Shown here in pieces: positions 4,570 to 24,697 of a DNA stretch of 64,000 nucleotides; the first letter of the stretch is position 1; each line of letters begins with the position of its first letter. This DNA is from Basilea psittacipulmonis DSM 24701 (GTDB lineage Bacteria > Pseudomonadota > Gammaproteobacteria > Burkholderiales > Burkholderiaceae_B). Below the pieces are notes generated by a model. That model saw only the letters and a program-made list of their open reading frames with translations, was not told the DNA's origin and made no database searches. The translations under genes were made by a program, and so were the position numbers. The stretch spans positions 1,612,001 through 1,676,000 of the forward strand of contig NZ_CP009238.1 of NCBI RefSeq assembly GCF_000743945.1, in the 5' to 3' direction.

Positions 4570-5597
4570 TAAAAATCTCCTACTACTGGCACATTGCCGT
4601 AATACTCTTTGGTAAAGTTATTCCATTTGCCCAACGTTGACTTACCTTTGGATTGGTTGTTAGAGTCTTGCCAATTCCATGACGCTTTAAACCCTTGCCA
4701 ACCGCGTTCAATGGCAATCCTAATTGCTTGTTCTGTTGTTAGCCCTGCTTTTTGTGCTTCGTTTTCAAAGCCTCTTAAAGCGGTCTCAGTGATTTTTGAT
4801 TTTCGATGAGCAATAAAGTCGTCAGCAAGTTGCCCAGTGATGCCAAATTGGACAAGCAGATCTTTGGTTGATTTTTTTGGTGAGTTTTTAACGGGGGTGA
4901 GGTGAACAGCGTGCGAGTTTTTCTCGCGCGCGTTTATATTATTTATATTATTTATATTATTATCTACTATATTATTATTTATATATATAGGTTCTGGGTG
5001 CAAAATTTTCACCACCCCTAGTGCAGATTTTTCACTAGGTGGTGCAGAATTTTCACCACTTTCTTGTGTAATTTCTTCATTAGGTGGTGCAGAATTTTCA
5101 CCACCTAGTGCAAAATTTTCACCACCTAGTGCAAAATTTTCACCACCTAGTGCAATTTTTTCACCACCACCTAGTGCAGAATTTTCACCACCTAGTGCAA
5201 AATTTTCACCACCTAGTGCAGAATTTTCACCACCTAGTGCAAAATTTTCACCACCTAGTGCAAAATTTTCACCACCTAGTGCAATTTTTTCACCACCTAG
5301 TGCAATATTTTCACTAGGTATCTGCTTCCAATTTTCAGGGTGCAATTGATACACATTGCTACCACGTCCATCATTAGTTTTTCTTTCAAACACAGTTAGC
5401 ATTTTTAACGCTTGCATTTGTTTGATATGCTGAATGACTGTACGACGAGATACCTCACACTGCCTAGCAATGTCAGCATAGCTCGGATAGCAATAACCTT
5501 CATCATTGGCATTATCTGCCAATTTCAACAAAATAAGCTTTTTAGTGCTGTCCCCTATTTTGCTCTCTAACACCCTTGTGATAAGTTTGATGCTCAT
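4569..5597 (-). CDS. Phage replication initiator (lambda O-like) with internal iterons
   Basis: 342 residues. The N-terminal winged HTH (about 10-75: SYADIARQCEVSRRTVIQHIKQM) is the origin-binding domain seen in lambda-O-like and other phage replisome organisers. Residues about 94-175 are a heptad repeat A-L-G-G-E-N-F/S, encoded by 21-bp DNA repeats. The linker after it (INNNIVDNNINN) is encoded by the AT-rich block. The C-terminal helical domain (about 245-320, LLVQFGITGQLADDF, ALRGFENEAQKAGL) probably binds the loader encoded next. N-terminal binder, iterons inside the gene, then AT-rich DNA is the lambda O/ori layout. Confidence 0.88.
   Translation of the reverse strand: MSIKLITRVLESKIGDSTKKLILLKLADNANDEGYCYPSYADIARQCEVSRRTVIQHIKQMQALKMLTVFERKTNDGRGSNVYQLHPENWKQIPSENIALGGEKIALGGENFALGGENFALGGENSALGGENFALGGENSALGGGEKIALGGENFALGGENFALGGENSAPPNEEITQESGENSAPPSEKSALGVVKILHPEPIYINNNIVDNNINNINNINAREKNSHAVHLTPVKNSPKKSTKDLLVQFGITGQLADDFIAHRKSKITETALRGFENEAQKAGLTTEQAIRIAIERGWQGFKASWNWQDSNNQSKGKSTLGKWNNFTKEYYGNVPVVGDF
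4932..4990. other. AT-rich block: probable DNA-unwinding element of the phage origin
   Basis: About 58 bp of almost pure A/T, including three consecutive copies of a 9-bp TATATTATT-type direct repeat (4935-4962), located immediately downstream (in gene direction) of the iteron array inside the initiator gene. In lambda the AT-rich unwinding region has the same relative position inside O. Confidence 0.6.
4998..5314. repeat. 21-bp-period iteron array: probable phage replication origin
   Basis: Eleven tandem copies of a unit containing GTGCARAATTTTCAC start at 5087, 5108, 5129, 5150, 5174, 5195, 5216, 5237, 5258, 5279 and 5300; nine intervals are 21 bp and one is 24 bp. Three further cores start at 4998, 5021 and 5042. 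The core is nearly palindromic (GTG-C-AAAATTTT-CAC), and 21 bp is two helical turns, placing copies on one DNA face. The copy at 4998 keeps the DNA motif but is read in another frame (VVKILH rather than GGENFA), suggesting that selection is on DNA. Confidence 0.75.
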
Positions 5598-16629: not shown

Positions 16630-18126
16630 ATGCCTATTTTATCGATAGAATTTGCACTATTTTTTCTGATTTTTTTCCCTGTTTACTGGCTATTTAGAAC
16701 ACATATAAAAGCTCAAAACATTCTCTTATTATTAGCCAGTTTGGCATGGTTAATCAGCATTAATTATTGGTTCGCTTTGGCTGTTTTAGGCTATGGATTA
16801 GGCATTCATTTTATTGCCAAACGCATTATTCAAAAAACACCTTTTGCTTTTACTGGCGGGGTCGTCAGTACATTACTGTTTTTATCGATTTTCAAATACA
16901 GTAATTTTTATATTGCGGATCTGCAGTCTTTACTTCAATCCAGTCAATTTAATTTAATGATGCCTTTGGGTATTTCATATTACTGTTTTCAAGGAATTTC
17001 TTATTTACACACCCTTAAAGAAAAAGGCAAAAAACAGGCAATGGGCTTAATTGAGACACTTTGCTTTTTTAGTTTTTTTCCTACCATTACCACAGGCCCG
17101 ATTTTAAGAGGCGATGATCTTAGACTCGATGCCAGCCAAGTTGATCCGATACGTCAAGAAGGGTTAAAAAAATCAAAAGGAAAATTTCTTTTTCCAGGGG
17201 CCGTTCAACAATTCACAAAAGCCAAAGAACGATTTCTCATACAACCTCATTTGGCCCTTGCTTACTTGCTTTTAGGAACGTTTAAGGTTTGGGTTTTGTC
17301 GTCATTTTTAGGCGACCAAATTGTAAATCCTATTTTTCAAAATCCTGCTCAATACACCGCATTTGAAGTATTAATCGGAATTTACGGTTATACGTTTGAA
17401 CTTTATTTTAACTTTTCAGGTTCGATTGATTTAGTCATTGGACTGGCTATGTTATTAGGATTCCAATTACCACCCAACTTTGCGATGCCTCTTATCGCCT
17501 CAAATTTAAGAGAGTTTTGGAACCGTTGGCATATCACACTTTCGACATGGATTCGAGATTATATCTACATTCCTCTCGGTGGCAATCGTTATGGCTTTAT
17601 CGCCATGGAGCTATTTCTTTTTATTGCCATGTTATTGTCTGGTATATGGCATGGATCGGGATGGAATTTTGCTTTATGGGGTGCTTTACACGGCATCGCA
17701 CTCATGTTATTAAACTTGGGAGATTATTTGCTAGGTGATGGTCCAGAACGTTTGAAATCAGGCAGACAAAAAGCACTACACACGCATACATGGGGCAAAC
17801 CGATAGCGATATTTTTTAATTTACAGTTTGTAGCGTTCACCTTTGTCATTTTTAATACTAATAATCTAGATGATGCTTGGTTGATTTTTTCCAGTCTGGG
17901 ACAAAATGTACTACAACCTCCCGACAGCCTGTTTGTTTGGACATTTGCGGTCATGGTACTAGGTCTCATTTTTTACCCATATTTAGCCAAATTATTTTAT
18001 GCATTTGTCCAATTTTTACAAGCCATACCCATGGTTCTTTGGATTTTACCGATTGCCCTGATTTTGTTTATCATCATTACTATAGCTCCCTCTGGGATAC
18101 CTAGTTTTATTTATGCCAATTTCTAA
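16630..18126 (+). CDS. MBOAT O-acetyltransferase, PatA/PacA/AlgI-like
   Basis: 498 residues with about ten to twelve membrane segments. The MBOAT family passes acetyl groups across the inner membrane to a periplasmic transferase. Key features: MGISYYCFQGISYL (about 117-131), the REFWNRWHITLSTWIRDYIYIPLGGNR motif (about 294-321) and LSGIWHGSGWNFALWGALHG, containing the conserved catalytic-type His of WHG. The two downstream genes encode periplasmic SGNH proteins, the arrangement seen for peptidoglycan O-acetylation (PacA/PacB/Ape1, PatA/PatB). Alginate-type acetylation is less likely because no alginate genes are present in the window. Confidence 0.9.
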   Translation: MPILSIEFALFFLIFFPVYWLFRTHIKAQNILLLLASLAWLISINYWFALAVLGYGLGIHFIAKRIIQKTPFAFTGGVVSTLLFLSIFKYSNFYIADLQSLLQSSQFNLMMPLGISYYCFQGISYLHTLKEKGKKQAMGLIETLCFFSFFPTITTGPILRGDDLRLDASQVDPIRQEGLKKSKGKFLFPGAVQQFTKAKERFLIQPHLALAYLLLGTFKVWVLSSFLGDQIVNPIFQNPAQYTAFEVLIGIYGYTFELYFNFSGSIDLVIGLAMLLGFQLPPNFAMPLIASNLREFWNRWHITLSTWIRDYIYIPLGGNRYGFIAMELFLFIAMLLSGIWHGSGWNFALWGALHGIALMLLNLGDYLLGDGPERLKSGRQKALHTHTWGKPIAIFFNLQFVAFTFVIFNTNNLDDAWLIFSSLGQNVLQPPDSLFVWTFAVMVLGLIFYPYLAKLFYAFVQFLQAIPMVLWILPIALILFIIITIAPSGIPSFIYANF

Positions 18127-18129
18127 GAT

Positions 18130-19437
18130 ATGAAACCAATAAAAATTATTATCTTCTATATCGTGATCATCGCTATTGCCATTCTGGCGACATGGTTTAG
18201 CCAGAATTCGATCAATACTTATTGGCAACAAACCTATCATACTGACAGCCCATTAAAATATTTAGATCAATACAAACTATGGCAGTTAGGTGCCGATCTT
18301 CAAGATTCTTTCCAATCTGTTGTTTCGCTTGATCGTGACCACCCATCTGACGTTTCTCCTCAAACAACTTCTGAATTTATTGCAAAAGAATCGCCTGTTC
18401 AAACTCATGTACAAAGTAGCGTCACTTCGACTGACCCTACGCGTTCCCCTATCCCTGGCATCCAAGCTCGCGATGGCGTACCGAAACACGATCAAGTTGT
18501 CACCACCTCTCCCATCACCGTAAAAAAATCACCTAACACTTACGCCCAAAAAAGTGTGGTTGAAGCATCCAAACCAGTTGCTTCTCAACCTACCTCACCT
18601 CAAAAACAAAATACTCTTAAAACTTCATCAAATAAAAATGATGATTTAATTGCTAAATTAGCAGCCAAAACCACCCCCTCTGTTCAACATCAAACAGATA
18701 CCAATACCCGCATCGCTCGTTCTAACCCCAGTGTTAATGAGGATCGCAACAAAACAGTGAATTCACCAATCACCTCTACAGATTCTCGTTTTTCTTCATC
18801 GAGTAAAGTAAATTTGCAAATGGGTGATAAGGTATTTTTTGCTGGGGATTCGTTAATGCAAGGCGTAGCACCATATATGCAACGTTGGCTAAAACAACAT
18901 CACAATATTGATTCCATCAATTTAAGCAAACAAAGTACAGGACTCTCATATCCTAATTTTTTTGATTGGCCCAGAACTATTGAAGATATCATTAATTCAG
19001 ATCGTTCTATTAAACTACTTGTTATCTTCTTAGGTCCCAATGATCCATGGGATTTTCCAGATCCTCATAAACGCGGACGATATTTAAAATTCCAATCAAA
19101 CGAATGGGAAAGCGTTTATTTATCACGTGTTGATCGAATATTAAATGTTTGCAGAAAAAATAATGTCAAAGTCATTTGGTTAGGTATTCCTTTTATGAAA
19201 AAAGACAAACTTAACAGTCAAATGACTTATCTAGATAAGCTATTGAAAGATTATTTGCAATCAAAAGTGATTTGGTTACCGACCAAGTTTTTATTAAGTG
19301 GCAACCAACCTAGTTATGCAGACAGCATCAAAATCAACGGTGAAAATGTAAAAATGCGTAGTAATGACGGCATTCACTTTACGCCCAAAGCTCAAAAAAT
19401 GATTGCTGAATATATTGAATCTTACCTACAGTTTTAG
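18130..19437 (+). CDS. Periplasmic SGNH (DUF459-type) O-acetyltransferase partner, PacB/PatB-like
   Basis: 435 residues, 3 bp after the MBOAT gene. N-terminal hydrophobic anchor (about 4-22, IIIFYIVIIAIAILATWF), then a ~180-residue Ser/Thr/Lys/Pro-rich linker, then an SGNH domain from about 230: FFAGDSLMQG with nucleophile Ser241, a GPNDPWD block and DGIHFTPKA with Asp413 and His416. Probably anchored in the inner membrane and acting in the periplasm on glycan strands using acetyl groups supplied by the MBOAT protein. The direction (transferase or esterase) cannot be decided by sequence alone. Confidence 0.85.
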   Translation: MKPIKIIIFYIVIIAIAILATWFSQNSINTYWQQTYHTDSPLKYLDQYKLWQLGADLQDSFQSVVSLDRDHPSDVSPQTTSEFIAKESPVQTHVQSSVTSTDPTRSPIPGIQARDGVPKHDQVVTTSPITVKKSPNTYAQKSVVEASKPVASQPTSPQKQNTLKTSSNKNDDLIAKLAAKTTPSVQHQTDTNTRIARSNPSVNEDRNKTVNSPITSTDSRFSSSSKVNLQMGDKVFFAGDSLMQGVAPYMQRWLKQHHNIDSINLSKQSTGLSYPNFFDWPRTIEDIINSDRSIKLLVIFLGPNDPWDFPDPHKRGRYLKFQSNEWESVYLSRVDRILNVCRKNNVKVIWLGIPFMKKDKLNSQMTYLDKLLKDYLQSKVIWLPTKFLLSGNQPSYADSIKINGENVKMRSNDGIHFTPKAQKMIAEYIESYLQF

Positions 19438-19439
19438 TC

Positions 19440-20801
19440 ATGAATATTTTTAAAAAACTTTTTTTCTTTATTATTATCTTGTCCATCACAGGCTTACAAC
19501 TGTCTTTTGCGGCCAATCTGATAGATTATGGCAGTAACAAAACGTGGATACAAAAATTACGTCAAATTAATAAAACAGGAAAGTTTCGTATTATTCAATT
19601 AGGCGATTCGCATACAGCAGCAGATTTTTTTACCGATGCCGTCAGAAAAACACTCCAACAACGTTACGGCAACGGAGGGATAGGATGGGTGTACCCCAGC
19701 AAGGTTTCAGCTCAACGTATTGCCGCTGTTCAATACAGTGGTGCTGAAAACTGGCATATACTCAGCAGTCGAAAAGACGAGACTCATTCGTTTCCGATGG
19801 GAGGCATATTAGCACACCCACAAGCAGGACAAGCCAGTATCATTCAACTGAATGACGAACACGAAACACAACAAATACAAGACGTTTCCATCAATGTTCG
19901 TCCCATTGATATGCGTCATCGACTCGTAGTCAAAGATGCAGATGGGCAGACCGCTTATTTAAAAGTGAATACCAAAAACCACCTTTGGCAGACGCTTAAA
20001 CTCAAAGCAAAATTCCCAATCGAAATTTCAACGGAATCTGCCACTGATTTGTTAGAAATAGGATTCATCAATATTGAACATTCACAACATGGCGTAGTGT
20101 TATCTCCCATGGGTATCAATGGTGCTCAATTAAGCGATGTATTTAAATGGCGTGATAACTGGTATAACGATTTAATCAAAGCTCAACCTGATTTAATCAT
20201 TCTTGCTTTTGGTACGAACGAAGCCGTCAATAAAAATCTTGGTATGGAGAAAACAGAAATTTTATGGTCTCGCGTCATTCAACAAATGAAAGAACGATTA
20301 CCTGATACCGCTATCCTTATCATTGGTGCCCCAGAATCACTATCTAAAATATATGGCAACTGCGGACGAAGAATGCCTTCTTTAAACAATGTCCAAGCGA
20401 TGCAACTCAGACTCGCTAAAAAACACCATTTATTATATTGGTCTTGGCAAAGTGCAATGGGTGGCAAATGCTCCATGAGAAAATGGATTAAACGTGGATT
20501 AGGCAGAAAAGACGGCGTGCATTTTACCGCTGCAGGTTATGAACGAGCAGGCAAAAACCTTGCTCAAGAAATCATAAAAAAAGTCTCTCATGATCCCATG
20601 GTTACATCAACACATCGCAATAAACCTCGCCAGATCAAAAAAGCGACTCCCGCTCAATCAAGCACAAAAGCCACTCGCACTCAATCAAGTGCTAAAACCG
20701 CTCACTCAAAAACCAGTGTTAAACCGAAAACTAATGCTAAAACGAGTGTTACACCCCATACAAAAACAAACACTCATAAACCCCAATCCTCTACAAAATA
20801 A
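19440..20801 (+). CDS. Secreted SGNH esterase, Ape1/PatB-like (peptidoglycan O-acetyl metabolism)
   Basis: 453 residues. Signal peptide (about 1-25, ...SITGLQLSFAA). SGNH motifs: IIQLGDSHTAAD with Ser57, GTNEA block near 260 and DGVHFTAAGY with Asp358/His361. A beta-rich insert (about 85-215) lies between blocks I and III, as in Neisseria Ape1, which carries a carbohydrate-binding-like insert. The C-terminal ~75 residues are a Lys/Thr/Ser-rich low-complexity tail. Starts 2 bp after the preceding gene; operon of three. Probably removes (or transfers) acetyl groups on MurNAc. Confidence 0.85.
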   Translation: MNIFKKLFFFIIILSITGLQLSFAANLIDYGSNKTWIQKLRQINKTGKFRIIQLGDSHTAADFFTDAVRKTLQQRYGNGGIGWVYPSKVSAQRIAAVQYSGAENWHILSSRKDETHSFPMGGILAHPQAGQASIIQLNDEHETQQIQDVSINVRPIDMRHRLVVKDADGQTAYLKVNTKNHLWQTLKLKAKFPIEISTESATDLLEIGFINIEHSQHGVVLSPMGINGAQLSDVFKWRDNWYNDLIKAQPDLIILAFGTNEAVNKNLGMEKTEILWSRVIQQMKERLPDTAILIIGAPESLSKIYGNCGRRMPSLNNVQAMQLRLAKKHHLLYWSWQSAMGGKCSMRKWIKRGLGRKDGVHFTAAGYERAGKNLAQEIIKKVSHDPMVTSTHRNKPRQIKKATPAQSSTKATRTQSSAKTAHSKTSVKPKTNAKTSVTPHTKTNTHKPQSSTK

Positions 20802-20913: not shown

Positions 20914-20942
20914 AAAAAAATCCGTCAACAAAAGTTGACGGA
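20914..20942 (-). terminator. Terminator of the minus-strand ribDE-acyltransferase operon
   Basis: TCCGTCAAC-AAAA-GTTGACGGA hairpin; on the minus strand it is followed by seven T. Confidence 0.88.
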
Positions 20943-20995: not shown

Positions 20996-21883
20996 TTATT
21001 TAACAGATTGATCAGGTGCCAGATCCCCTTGCAATCGTTTCACCACACTTTCAGGTAGCAATCTTCTTTCTTTCTCGAAGTTAACCGCCGTTAAATAAGC
21101 GGCAAACGGAGTAATATGATCACGATCAGAATACGTAAATTCGCCATTTACCAATACATCAGGCGTATAAGGAGTGATATCCACCCAATAGACATTAGGT
21201 AAAGAAATAATCGTATTTTTAATTTTTTCATTACTTTCTTTTGAGAACTCAAATTTATGTATTGGTTTACCTCCCGGAATATATTTTTCTAATCCAAAAT
21301 ATGATAGTTGTCGATATTTTTTAGGATGATAACTAACTGTATATACATCTGAGAAAACATAAACGATCTTATCCTTAGATAGGTATTTAACGAATTCATA
21401 GAATTGTTGATAAAAATCAGGATGAATATATCGGTCTCGATTATTTCGGTCAAATACGGGATAATCGGCCGAATACAAATCATAGTAGTAGCTTAAAATC
21501 ACTACTTTATATTTTTTTATTGCTTCAAGATTATTTAAACAAACTGGATTATTAATAATCTCACCTTGAGCAGAAATAGGAAACTTACATTCCTCATCAT
21601 CGGAATTCAAATTCAAGAGTTTTACATTCCAACCTTCTTTTGAACCCACATAATTAAAGAAATAAGTCAAGTGTCCTGCATGAGAATCTCCTATTAACAG
21701 AACGTCTTTAGGATATTCATTTTTCACCCACAAATCCGTATGGGTGGGGGGGGGGTATTTCAAATTGTGCTTTAAGCTTGTTAAGCGTATAGGTATAACC
21801 CAATAATAAAACACTAGGCAAAAAGTAAAATAATAAAAGTGTCTTCTTAAATGAGAATTTCGTGTAGCGACATTTTTGCTCAA
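20996..21883 (-). CDS. C-terminal SGNH half of a frameshifted acyltransferase-3 gene
   Basis: This open frame holds an SGNH domain: VLLIGDSHAGHLTYFF (nucleophile Ser in GDSH) and SDRDHITPFAA (Asp/His pair) near the C-terminus. The frame overlaps the acyltransferase-3 gene by 167 bp in another frame; its formal start is a TTG inside that gene without a convincing ribosome site. The real SGNH coding part begins at the C10 tract (about 21755). Loss of one C, or gain of two, would fuse it to the upstream membrane domain, giving about 638 residues, the normal size for acyltransferase-3/SGNH fusions (OafB/OatA-like). As sequenced it is probably not translated efficiently. Confidence 0.75.
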   Translation of the reverse strand: MSKNVATRNSHLRRHFYYFTFCLVFYYWVIPIRLTSLKHNLKYPPPTHTDLWVKNEYPKDVLLIGDSHAGHLTYFFNYVGSKEGWNVKLLNLNSDDEECKFPISAQGEIINNPVCLNNLEAIKKYKVVILSYYYDLYSADYPVFDRNNRDRYIHPDFYQQFYEFVKYLSKDKIVYVFSDVYTVSYHPKKYRQLSYFGLEKYIPGGKPIHKFEFSKESNEKIKNTIISLPNVYWVDITPYTPDVLVNGEFTYSDRDHITPFAAYLTAVNFEKERRLLPESVVKRLQGDLAPDQSVK

Positions 21884-22913
21884 TAAAGATATAACTAAAT
21901 ATTGACAACAACACAGTCAATACAGAAATTACCAATAGTTGTATGGGTGTAAATGGATCTTGGGTACCTATCACATATTTAAAAAAGGTAATAATTGGCC
22001 AGTGCCATAAATATAAAGAATACGACAATAAACCAATTTTTACTAAAACAGAAAAAGACAATAATTTTTTAATCCAAATTGAGAAAGGTGCAAAATATAT
22101 CAATCCTGCGGTCATGAAACACGGTAATAATAAAGCCATACCAGGAACATATTTCATGTCTTCACGATACCAATAAAAACAAAGAAATAAACCACATAAA
22201 CATATACCTGATATGAGATCCGCTAAAAATGATTGTTTATTTCCTGTCTTAATTTCTGACACAATTAAAGATAATGCTGAACCGATAAGCAATTCAAAAA
22301 ATCTCAACTGCGGTAGATAATAAATATTGGAAAATTTAGTATAAAAAGAACGCGGAATAAAGCTTAACAAGACGCTAATAAGAATGAATGCTGTAAAGAT
22401 TAACAACAAGGTTTTCGTTTTCTTACTAAACCATTTGTAAATGCAGAAAAACAAAAAAGGAAAAATAAAATAAAATTGTTCTTCAACCGCTAATGACCAG
22501 ATATGAATCAAAGAATTCTCTTCTGTAATCGGATCAAAATAACCATGCCTTAATTTAGCAAAAAATATATTTGCTAGGAAAATAACTGAAAACTCGGCCT
22601 CTTGTTTTAAAAGACCAAAGTCAGAACGTCTAAATAAAAACGTAGCAACTAGAAAAACACACCAAATAACAAAAATAAAATTTGGATAAATACGTTTTAA
22701 TCTTCGGTTATAAAAATCCTTAAAAGAAAAATTTCCCTCTACCAAACTATTTCTAATAATTTTGGTAATCAAATATCCTGAGATAACAAAAAATATATCA
22801 ACGCCAAGAAACCCACCTGGCAGATAAGATGCATTAAGGTGAAAAATAATCACCGACAACACCGCGATGGCTCTTAATCCATCAATATCCGAGCGATAAT
22901 TAATACTACTCAT
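21717..22913 (-). CDS. Acyltransferase-3 (OafA/YrhL-type) surface O-acetyltransferase, truncated by frameshift
   Basis: 398 residues. It opens with the family signature YRSDIDGLRAIAVLSVIIFHL, LPGGFLGVDIFFVISGYLI, then IHIWSLAVEEQFYFIFP and SYSLYLWHWPI; ten or so membrane helices. Such proteins acetylate LPS O-antigen, capsule or peptidoglycan. At residue ~387 the frame enters a run of ten C and ends 12 residues later (HPYGFVGEK), while the SGNH domain continues in another frame. This looks like slipped-strand phase variation in the OFF phase. It begins 6 bp after ribE, so it is probably co-transcribed with ribDE. Confidence 0.88.
   Translation of the reverse strand: MSSINYRSDIDGLRAIAVLSVIIFHLNASYLPGGFLGVDIFFVISGYLITKIIRNSLVEGNFSFKDFYNRRLKRIYPNFIFVIWCVFLVATFLFRRSDFGLLKQEAEFSVIFLANIFFAKLRHGYFDPITEENSLIHIWSLAVEEQFYFIFPFLFFCIYKWFSKKTKTLLLIFTAFILISVLLSFIPRSFYTKFSNIYYLPQLRFFELLIGSALSLIVSEIKTGNKQSFLADLISGICLCGLFLCFYWYREDMKYVPGMALLLPCFMTAGLIYFAPFSIWIKKLLSFSVLVKIGLLSYSLYLWHWPIITFFKYVIGTQDPFTPIQLLVISVLTVLLSIFSYIFIEQKCRYTKFSFKKTLLLFYFLPSVLLLGYTYTLNKLKAQFEIPPPHPYGFVGEK
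21746..21755 (-). repeat. Homopolymeric C10 tract (G10 on plus strand): phase-variation switch
   Basis: Ten consecutive G on the plus strand within the coding sequence, the longest homopolymeric G/C run noticed in the window. With 9 or 12 residues the membrane and SGNH domains are in one frame; with 10 they are not. Confidence 0.85.
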
Positions 22914-22919
22914 GCATCA

Positions 22920-23537
22920 TTACCTTTTACATTCAACATAACGCACGACATATCGTGCCAACATATCAATTTCTACATTAACCGCATCGCCCACTTGATT
23001 GTATTGCAATGTCGTATGGGCAATGGTATGAGGAATGATGTTAATCGATACATCACTGCCTGAAGCATCATCTTTTACTCGATTAATCGTCAAACTAATC
23101 CCATTAATCGTGATAGAACCTTTGTAAGCCACAAATGGACTCAAACTTGCAGGCACCGAGACACACAACTCATAAGATTCAGAAATTTTTTCAAGCTTAG
23201 TAATCTTTCCTATCGCATCCACATGACCTGAAACAATATGCCCATCCAGCGTCTCGCCTACTTTCATTGCCGTTTCAAGATTAACCTTTTTACCCACCGT
23301 ATTGAGGCCAACTGTTTTCGTTAAGCTTTCTTTTGATACGTGAATTTTAAATGTATCGGACGTTTTTTCCACCACGGTCATGCAAGCCCCTTGCACGGCA
23401 ATCGAATCACCGATATGCACCGATTCCAAAGGTAAGGTGGGTGCAAAAATCACCACTTCCACTCCCGATTGTTCGGTACCGCCTAATTCTTTAACGGATC
23501 GAACTTCCCCAATGTAACGAATAATACCTGTAAACAT
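22920..23537 (-). CDS. ribE: Riboflavin synthase alpha chain
   Basis: 205 residues. Two lumazine-binding repeats: MFTGIIRYIGEV... with GDSIAVQGACMTV and second repeat DGHIVSGHVDAIGKI ... KGSITINGISLTIN. Dismutates two 6,7-dimethyl-8-ribityllumazine molecules to riboflavin. Lies 2 bp after ribD. No FMN riboswitch was recognised upstream of ribD. Named ribE in proteobacteria (ribC in some naming systems). Confidence 0.95.
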   Translation of the reverse strand: MFTGIIRYIGEVRSVKELGGTEQSGVEVVIFAPTLPLESVHIGDSIAVQGACMTVVEKTSDTFKIHVSKESLTKTVGLNTVGKKVNLETAMKVGETLDGHIVSGHVDAIGKITKLEKISESYELCVSVPASLSPFVAYKGSITINGISLTINRVKDDASGSDVSINIIPHTIAHTTLQYNQVGDAVNVEIDMLARYVVRYVECKR

Positions 23538-23539
23538 AT

Positions 23540-24697
23540 TTACATCCCTAACAAATTACTATTAAATATAGAACGCCAATGCACCTTATGTCTTAATCTC
23601 AATCGAATATCATTGTCTAAGCACTGAGATCCTACAAATTCCCATGGTTGTACTTGCTCTAGATCGCTTAATACTGGCAAGGTGAACACATCTTTTGATT
23701 CATGCCCTAGAATCTTTGGTGCTTGATACCAAATCATTTCATCTAATAATTCATTTTGGTACAAAGCCCCATTGACCGTGCTTCCCGCTTCAACGTGTAT
23801 TTCATTAATATCTTTTTCTGCCAAAACACTCATTAACACTGATAAATTTAACATTCCCTCTTGAGTCAACGGTACGGCAATCAAGCAAACACCTTTATCT
23901 CTTAAAACACGAGCTGACTCTGTTTTTAACGCTTCTTCTGAACACACCCATATCAGTTTTTCAGGTTCTACTGTCAATATGTGTGCATTTAAGGGGCAGC
24001 GTAAATGTGTATCTAATACTATGCGATACGGTTGTCTAACAGTCGGCACCTCTCTTACATTTAAAGTAGGATCATCGGCCAATATCGTTCCAATACCTGT
24101 CAAAACCGCACAGCTCCTAGCTCTCCAATGATGACCATCTTTTCTAGATGCTGGCGAAGTAATCCATTTTGATTGTCCGTTGGCCAAAGAAATTTTGCCA
24201 TCCAATGAGCTCGCTATTTTGCTTCGTACCCAAGGACGTTGTGTCAGCATCCGCCACATAAAACCGACATTTAACTCCACACATTGTTCGATCAAATCGC
24301 GATCTGATAATAGCGTTACCTCGATCCCTGCTTGGCGTAATAAATGCACTCCCTTACCAGCCACTTTCGGATTCGGATCTAAGGTACCTATCACCACACG
24401 CGCTATTTTCGCTTCTATCAAAGCATTAGCACAAGGCGGTGTACGCCCAAAATGACTGCAAGGTTCTAAAGTTACATAAGCTGTCGCCCCTGATAAATCT
24501 ATTCCTTTTTGTTTAGCCAGATAAATCGCTTGTGCTTCAGCATGTCGTTGTCCCGCGACTTGTGTACCTGCCCGTGCCAAAATCTCATCATTCTTAACTA
24601 ACACACAACCTACTCGAGGATTAGGTGAAGTGAGATATATCGAGGATCTTGCCTCATCCAAAGCAAGCTGCATGTATTCTAAATTCAAAGGTGTCAT
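23540..24697 (-). CDS. ribD: Bifunctional riboflavin deaminase/reductase RibD
   Basis: 385 residues. N-terminal zinc deaminase domain with HAEAQA and PCSHFGRTPPC (His, two Cys and Glu), C-terminal reductase domain from about 150 (RPWVRSKIASSLDGKISL... ADDPTLNVR... HVEAGSTVNGALYQ). Carries out the second and third steps of riboflavin synthesis. First gene of ribD-ribE-acyltransferase. Divergent from the TadE-like gene across 171 bp. Confidence 0.95.
   Translation of the reverse strand: MTPLNLEYMQLALDEARSSIYLTSPNPRVGCVLVKNDEILARAGTQVAGQRHAEAQAIYLAKQKGIDLSGATAYVTLEPCSHFGRTPPCANALIEAKIARVVIGTLDPNPKVAGKGVHLLRQAGIEVTLLSDRDLIEQCVELNVGFMWRMLTQRPWVRSKIASSLDGKISLANGQSKWITSPASRKDGHHWRARSCAVLTGIGTILADDPTLNVREVPTVRQPYRIVLDTHLRCPLNAHILTVEPEKLIWVCSEEALKTESARVLRDKGVCLIAVPLTQEGMLNLSVLMSVLAEKDINEIHVEAGSTVNGALYQNELLDEMIWYQAPKILGHESKDVFTLPVLSDLEQVQPWEFVGSQCLDNDIRLRLRHKVHWRSIFNSNLLGM

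What the first reader, a model, noticed from the sequence alone, without database searches (positions are those of the whole stretch)
20996..22913. Probable phase-variable surface O-acetyltransferase switched OFF by a C10 tract
The acyltransferase-3 membrane domain (21717-22913) and an SGNH domain (20996 to ~21755) lie in two different frames joined exactly at ten consecutive C on the coding strand. Nine or twelve C would give one ~638-residue fusion protein, the usual OafB/OatA-like length. The tract is the longest G/C homopolymer seen in the window. Slipped-strand variation of coding homopolymers in surface acetyltransferases is well known in Neisseria and other mucosal bacteria. I do not know of a description for this gene.
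Basis: partly seen in the sequence, partly recalled or inferred. Interest (0 to 1): 0.8.

Follow-up and report, generated by a model that had tools for sequence, protein, structure and literature searches.

The report
Switchable sugar-acetylating surface enzyme gene
A bacterial gene for an enzyme that probably adds acetyl groups to surface sugars is split at a run of ten identical bases, and similar runs sit in or beside many other surface genes of the same genome, so it looks like one of a set of random on/off switches of a kind already known from other mucosal bacteria.

Summary
A G10 run (21746-21755; C10 on the coding strand) lies where an AT3 membrane acyltransferase frame (PF01757) ends and an AT3-type SGNH frame (PF19040) continues in another frame. 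Both halves keep the named catalytic residues, and no stop breaks either before or after the tract; the SGNH frame has no ATG. Such a run appears in 0 of 100 shuffles. The main support lies outside the window: the 1.96 Mb genome holds 30 G/C runs of 9 or more where 0.8-2.5 are expected, and by my grouping 22 of its 37 runs of 8 or more lie in or just upstream of surface-glycan, adhesin or outer-membrane genes. One is a second, intact AT3-SGNH gene with an in-frame G13. Fragments from another assembly appear to break at this tract. Most likely this is a phase-variable surface O-acetyltransferase, out of frame in the sequenced clone. Length variation was not seen directly, and the acceptor glycan is unknown. 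The kind is known (Haemophilus oafA, Neisseria pglI and Lot); the member, and the repertoire in this little-studied genome (probably Basilea psittacipulmonis), are new.

The parts
21756..22913 (-). AT3 membrane acyltransferase half, open up to the tract
   Evidence: PF01757 E 1.7e-33; R14, H25, R71/R74, E144/E145 and Y198 invariant in an alignment of 8; last TM-like segment at residues 359-377, just before the tract (simple hydropathy scan)
21746..21755 (-). C10 tract on the coding strand; the two frames meet here
   Evidence: 0 of 100 shuffles
21717..21745 (-). Short tail of the AT3 ORF after the tract, out of frame with the SGNH domain, ending in a stop
20996..21745 (-). SGNH half: GDSH and DRDH motifs and two conserved cysteines; no ATG in its frame
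   Evidence: PF19040 E 8.5e-16; alignment of 8; codon count; model mean pLDDT 85.7 with top fold match 6se1
20921..20942 (-). Terminator-like hairpin with T tail behind the SGNH half
   Evidence: consensus scan only; 4 found in the region, 2.5 expected
22920..24697 (-). Two upstream genes on the same strand, 2 bp apart; the nearer one ends 6 bp before the AT3 start. I take them for ribE and ribD by recall; no family call was made
   Evidence: ORFs
16630..20801 (+). Convergent neighbours: PatA-like MBOAT, PatB-like and Ape1-like genes
   Evidence: PF03062; NF045704 at 398 bits, under its cut-off of 580; PF22753

Best explanation
This is one gene for an AT3-SGNH O-acyltransferase with a hypermutable C tract at the linker between the last membrane helix and the periplasmic SGNH domain. 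Shown: the two halves lie in different frames that meet at the tract, so this sequence encodes the membrane half with a short foreign tail, and the SGNH half without a start of its own. Inferred: replication slippage changes the tract length at random. In one of the three phases the whole enzyme is made; it would take an acetyl group from acetyl-CoA through the AT3 domain, pass it to the SGNH domain, and transfer it to a surface glycan (most likely LOS or another outer-membrane glycan). In the other two phases the SGNH domain is missing and acetylation by this enzyme stops. The gene is one of a repertoire of such switches in this genome.
For: G10 present and not a chance run. Both halves hit the matching Pfam families and keep the named catalytic residues. 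Where the 7 other aligned proteins agree, the AT3 half agrees at 84 of 93 columns and the SGNH ORF at 33 of 40 (4 of its 7 misses are in the out-of-frame stretch before the domain); the intact paralogue, tested the same way, agrees at 84 of 104 and 33 of 42, so there is no sign of decay. After the tract one frame stays open for 249 codons and the other two close after 6 and 8. The genome holds 37 G/C runs of 8 or more and 30 of 9 or more, against 4.3-9.9 and 0.8-2.5 expected from Markov chains fitted on the window. By my grouping 22 of the 37 lie in (18) or 22-142 bp upstream of (4) surface-glycan, adhesin or outer-membrane genes. A 631-aa paralogue with an in-frame G13 lies elsewhere in the genome. 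Of 73 AT3-homologue frames only 5, the paralogue included, have a G/C run of 8 or more, so the tracts go with this genome more than with the family. Database fragments from other contigs hold the AT3 half up to 9 of the 10 tract bases (52,724-bp contig) and the SGNH half from 21 bases after the tract (16,476-bp contig); breaks within the repeat of pglI are reported for meningococcal assemblies (PMC7371114, passage). At a sister tract, a split GT42 gene, a fragment from a 2,465-bp contig shows the same out-of-frame tail as the complete genome. Precedents: oafA, pglI, Lot.
Against: No length variation was observed in this gene: only one genome of the genus is held. mutS and mutL are present in long open frames, so loss of mismatch repair does not explain instability. 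A contig break at a homopolymer can be purely technical, and that the fragments lie at contig ends is inferred from a missing stop and a missing start. The surface-gene tally has no background control; 15 of 37 tracts are at other or unassigned places, and at 11 tracts at least one flanking ORF was not scanned. Runs of exactly 8 are not clearly in excess (7 against 3.5-7.6). In a raw count of overlapping C9 matches not corrected for GC or size, 3 of 60 other genomes exceed this one's 54. The AT3 half differs from all 7 others at 9 columns, the SGNH ORF at 7.
Confidence: 0.85

Rival explanations
1. Ordinary pseudogene: the frame was lost once at the tract and the gene is decaying.
For: The sequenced clone is out of frame and no in-frame copy of this gene was seen.
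Against: No other stop in either half, catalytic and cysteine positions kept, and divergence no greater than in the intact paralogue. Several other tracts of the genome sit inside intact genes.
Confidence: 0.06
2. Sequencing or assembly error at a homopolymer: the gene is really in frame in the sequenced clone.
For: Homopolymers are error-prone, fragments from another assembly appear to end at this point, and the Basilea genome paper reports 454 errors at homopolymers (PMC4028982, passage).
Against: At a sister tract a second assembly agrees on the out-of-frame state. Even if true here, a C10 tract in a coding linker would still be a candidate switch.
Confidence: 0.1
3. Two separate proteins: a stand-alone AT3 and a stand-alone SGNH protein, as in PatA/PatB.
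For: Stand-alone AT3 proteins exist (PMC9558356, passage). The SGNH ORF has 7 GTG and 10 TTG codons, one GTG 21-24 bases after the tract.
Against: There is no ATG in the whole SGNH frame and no hydrophobic export segment after the tract, so the piece would stay in the cytoplasm. 69 of 73 homologue frames are at least 584 aa.
Confidence: 0.03
4. Programmed ribosomal or transcriptional slippage on the C tract makes some fused protein from this same sequence, so it is not a heritable switch.
For: A C10 run is a plausible slippery site (general knowledge, no call).
Against: The genome's tracts also lie upstream of genes and in unrelated genes, which fits hypermutation better. No stimulatory structure was looked for.
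Confidence: 0.05

Closest known systems
OafA of Haemophilus influenzae (LOS heptose III O-acetyltransferase)
   Same: AT3 protein, phase variable (PMC9558356 section 7). AT3-SGNH proteins named H. influenzae (601-626 aa) are 45-47% identical to the AT3 half; that they are OafA is my inference.
   Different: Its repeats are tetranucleotides (title of Fox 2005 in the reference list of PMC9558356); here a mononucleotide C tract in the linker.
PglI (NMB1836) of Neisseria meningitidis, pilin-glycan O-acetyltransferase
   Same: AT3-SGNH (PMC9558356 passage), switched by a coding G tract of 9-15 (PMC5953494 table passage; also PMC7371114). Neisseria proteins (539-622 aa) are 43-44% identical; which gene they are was not checked.
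   Different: G, not C, on the coding strand; no pilin-glycan acceptor is shown here; tract position in PglI not checked.
Lot (Lot3) LOS O-acetyltransferase of Neisseria meningitidis
   Same: Phase-variable (PMC3526765 passage) AT3 protein acting on LOS inner core (PMC9558356 section 7)
   Different: Its sequence was not compared by name here.
OafB of Salmonella (O-antigen acetyltransferase)
   Same: AT3-SGNH with R-X10-H, RXXR and a periplasmic SGNH (PMC9833829 passages); its SGNH structure 6se1 is the top fold match
   Different: 13-14% identity over the SGNH; its phase variation is described as epigenetic, with signature sequences upstream of the gene (PMC9558356 passage).
Homopolymeric-tract phase variation in Bordetella
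   Same: Same family if the host is Basilea; 69 tracts longer than chance in three genomes, 6 of 9 genotyped polymorphic among B. pertussis strains (PMC1891110 abstract)
   Different: GC-rich genomes; no acyltransferase of this type is named in that abstract.

Membership tests
AT3-SGNH surface O-acyltransferase (OafA/OafB/OatA type) | AT3 domain over its full length | tested here: met
   PF01757 positions 3-324 of 326
AT3-SGNH surface O-acyltransferase (OafA/OafB/OatA type) | R-X10-H and RXXR motifs | tested here: met
   R14/H25 and R71-L-K-R74; motif list from passages of PMC9833829
AT3-SGNH surface O-acyltransferase (OafA/OafB/OatA type) | SGNH domain with catalytic Ser and DxxH | tested here: met
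AT3-SGNH surface O-acyltransferase (OafA/OafB/OatA type) | Both domains in one polypeptide | tested here: not met
   Out of frame in this clone. The claim is therefore that the gene is a switched-off member; the paralogue in the same genome is one polypeptide.
AT3-SGNH surface O-acyltransferase (OafA/OafB/OatA type) | Acetylates a defined surface glycan | not testable with these tools
   needs chemistry
Simple-sequence-repeat phase-variable (contingency) locus | Coding or promoter repeat longer than chance | tested here: met
Simple-sequence-repeat phase-variable (contingency) locus | Repeat length sets the reading frame of an otherwise whole gene | tested here: met
   frames meet at the tract; no other stop; divergence like that of the intact paralogue
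Simple-sequence-repeat phase-variable (contingency) locus | Repeat length differs between cells or isolates | tested here: inconclusive
   one genome of the genus held; fragments from another assembly appear to end at the tract
Simple-sequence-repeat phase-variable (contingency) locus | Reversible change of phenotype | not testable with these tools
   needs colonies and chemistry
Peptidoglycan O-acetyltransferase of the PatA/PatB kind | MBOAT PatA with a separate PatB | tested here: not met
   this gene is AT3, not MBOAT; the PatA/PatB/Ape1-like genes are the separate neighbours at 16630-20801

The most novel reading that the evidence does not exclude
The tract sits after the last membrane helix, so the out-of-frame product may be a whole AT3 domain without its SGNH domain. 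The switch could then be between two working enzymes (AT3 plus SGNH, and AT3 alone or borrowing another periplasmic SGNH protein such as the neighbouring PatB-like one), changing acceptor or dosage instead of simply on and off.
Probability: 0.1. Interest if true: 0.65.

Novelty: new member of a known kind. Interest (0 to 1): 0.42.

Why it matters
It adds a likely phase-variable surface O-acetyltransferase in a genus for which the held library has no paper with both the species name and 'phase vari'. More usefully, it points to a genome-wide set of 30 G/C tracts of 9 or more, many of them at LOS-type, adhesin and outer-membrane genes, so the surface of this probably bird-associated bacterium may be a mixture of many variants in any culture. 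Two AT3-SGNH genes in one genome carry tracts at different places and of different bases, which suggests that switchability was gained twice.

Tried and rejected

Limits: the tally of 22 of 37 tracts is my own grouping of Pfam names, without a genome background. At tracts 9, 16, 18, 20, 23, 28, 29, 30, 31, 32 and 35 at least one flanking ORF was not scanned. The Markov expectation was fitted on the 64 kb window only. The 73 homologue frames come from the best-scoring loci that the tools returned, so they are not a random sample. The identity count printed by the script was out of register and is not used; I rely on the printed sequences and the 99%. TM segments come from a simple hydropathy scan.

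Full report
Observation. The coding strand of window 20996-22913 holds two open frames: 398 aa at 22913-21717 and 295 aa at 21883-20996. Pfam names the first Acyl_transf_3 (PF01757, 1.7e-33) and the second 'SGNH domain (fused to AT3 domains)' (PF19040, 8.5e-16; residues 58-268). They overlap only around a G10 run at 21746-21755, ten C on the coding strand. It is the only G/C run longer than 6 in 64 kb, and 0 of 100 dinucleotide shuffles gave one. After the tract, one frame stays open for 249 codons and the other two close after 6 and 8.

The genome. The window lies in a single 1,959,069-base contig. A pattern search, collapsed by script, gives 37 distinct G/C runs of 8 or more: 7 of 8, 18 of 9, 6 of 10, 4 of 11, one of 13 and one of 15. 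Markov chains of order 1 to 4 fitted on the window predict 4.3-9.9 runs of 8 or more and 0.8-2.5 of 9 or more; 30 of 9 or more are found. The excess is in runs of 9 and up; runs of exactly 8 (7, against 3.5-7.6) are not clearly in excess. Of 61 genomes searched for nine C, 59 have some. In these raw counts of overlapping matches, not corrected for GC or size, this genome has 54 and three of the 60 others have more.

What the tracts touch. By my grouping of Pfam names, 18 of 37 tracts lie in, or at a frame break of, genes for two AT3-SGNH proteins (one is this gene), two GT42 sialyltransferases, three GT25, two GT2, a GT52, a GT10, a GT9, two sulfatase-family (phosphoethanolamine-transferase-like) proteins, an autotransporter, two YadA-like adhesins and an Opacity-type porin. 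Four more lie 22-142 bp upstream of a GT2, a fimbrial protein, a YadA adhesin, and a polysaccharide-export/UDP-GlcNAc-epimerase pair. Fifteen are elsewhere or unassigned. No background of all genes was counted. Five genes appear split at a tract: this one, a GT42 (its short second piece had no Pfam match), the GT52 (both pieces match PF07922), the autotransporter (first piece without a match), and a type III-A cas10/csm1.

The paralogue. At G000:C1:47.0-48.9 kb lies an intact 631-aa AT3-SGNH protein, 44% identical to the AT3 half, with an in-frame G13 inside its membrane domain. Of the 73 homologue frames only 5 have a G/C run of 8 or more: this paralogue, L115 (G10), L019, L024 and L106 (8 each). 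Its tract lies at another place and uses the other base, so the two tracts probably arose separately (inference).

Is the frameshift real? The protein database holds the AT3 half as a 389-aa fragment on a 52,724-bp contig, without a stop, ending after 9 of the 10 tract bases (P0001), and the SGNH half as a 242-aa fragment on a 16,476-bp contig, without a start, beginning 21 bases after the tract (P0122). I infer that another assembly of this genome broke here. That can be technical or reflect mixed lengths; breaks within the repeat of pglI are reported in meningococcal genomes (PMC7371114, passage). At the split GT42 gene a fragment from a 2,465-bp contig has the same out-of-frame tail as the complete genome, so at least that frameshift is not a single-assembly error.

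Origin. The gene is 31.2% GC in a 40.0% window, and 0.6% of equal-sized windows within it are as low; the paralogue is 29.6%. In the best 120 of 7,995 matches the named homologues are from Gallibacterium (54%), Haemophilus and Rodentibacter (45-48%), Pasteurella (44%) and Neisseria (43-44%). I take it as horizontally acquired (inference). The start codon lies 6 bp behind the gene that ends at 22920, so it is probably read from that upstream operon (inference). A terminator-like hairpin follows.

Function and mechanism. By homology the enzyme moves acetyl groups across the membrane to a glycan. The named phase-variable relatives act on LOS (oafA, PMC9558356 section 7 and passages; Lot, PMC3526765 passage) or on pilin glycan (pglI, G tract 9-15, PMC5953494 passage). 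Here the tract cluster around the paralogue is full of glycosyltransferases of families known from LOS, which favours LOS (inference). Peptidoglycan is less likely, as PatA/PatB/Ape1-like genes lie next door.

Organism. [quoted passage not shown] This is inference. The library has no paper with both that name and 'phase vari'.

Verdict. It is a new member of a known kind, made more interesting by the genome-wide repertoire. Direct proof of length variation is missing.

Noticed in passing
G000:C1:47000-58300 (in locus L076): A low-GC stretch (L076 is 31.8%) with seven G/C tracts in an AT3-SGNH gene, two GT42 sialyltransferases, three GT25 and a GT2: a candidate hypervariable LOS locus. The GT42 pair has tracts at nearly the same place, G9 in frame and G8 out of frame.
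   Followed up: partly
G000:C1:1266582 (L090:3083-3090): A type III-A CRISPR cas10/csm1 gene appears split at a C8 run: the pieces match TIGR02578 positions 60-129 (weakly, 23 bits) and 149-753. Possibly a switchable or broken CRISPR effector; runs of exactly 8 are not in clear excess.
   Followed up: partly
G000:C1:1438242 (L093:2743-2757): The longest tract, C15, lies a few bases upstream of a GT2 gene (22 bp from tract start to the listed start codon), at promoter or ribosome-binding-site distance.
   Followed up: no
G000:C1:1494007 (L094:3008-3018): C11 near the 3' end of a histidine kinase gene, so tract length would change its C-terminal tail.
   Followed up: no
   Followed up: no
L076:11617-12366: A sialyltransferase piece 78% identical to a protein of Psittacicella hinzii: possible gene exchange between bird-associated bacteria.
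   Followed up: no
window 4998-5314: Tandem array of a 21-bp unit; about 10.7 copies at 5087-5314, with longer periods over 4998-5314.
   Followed up: no
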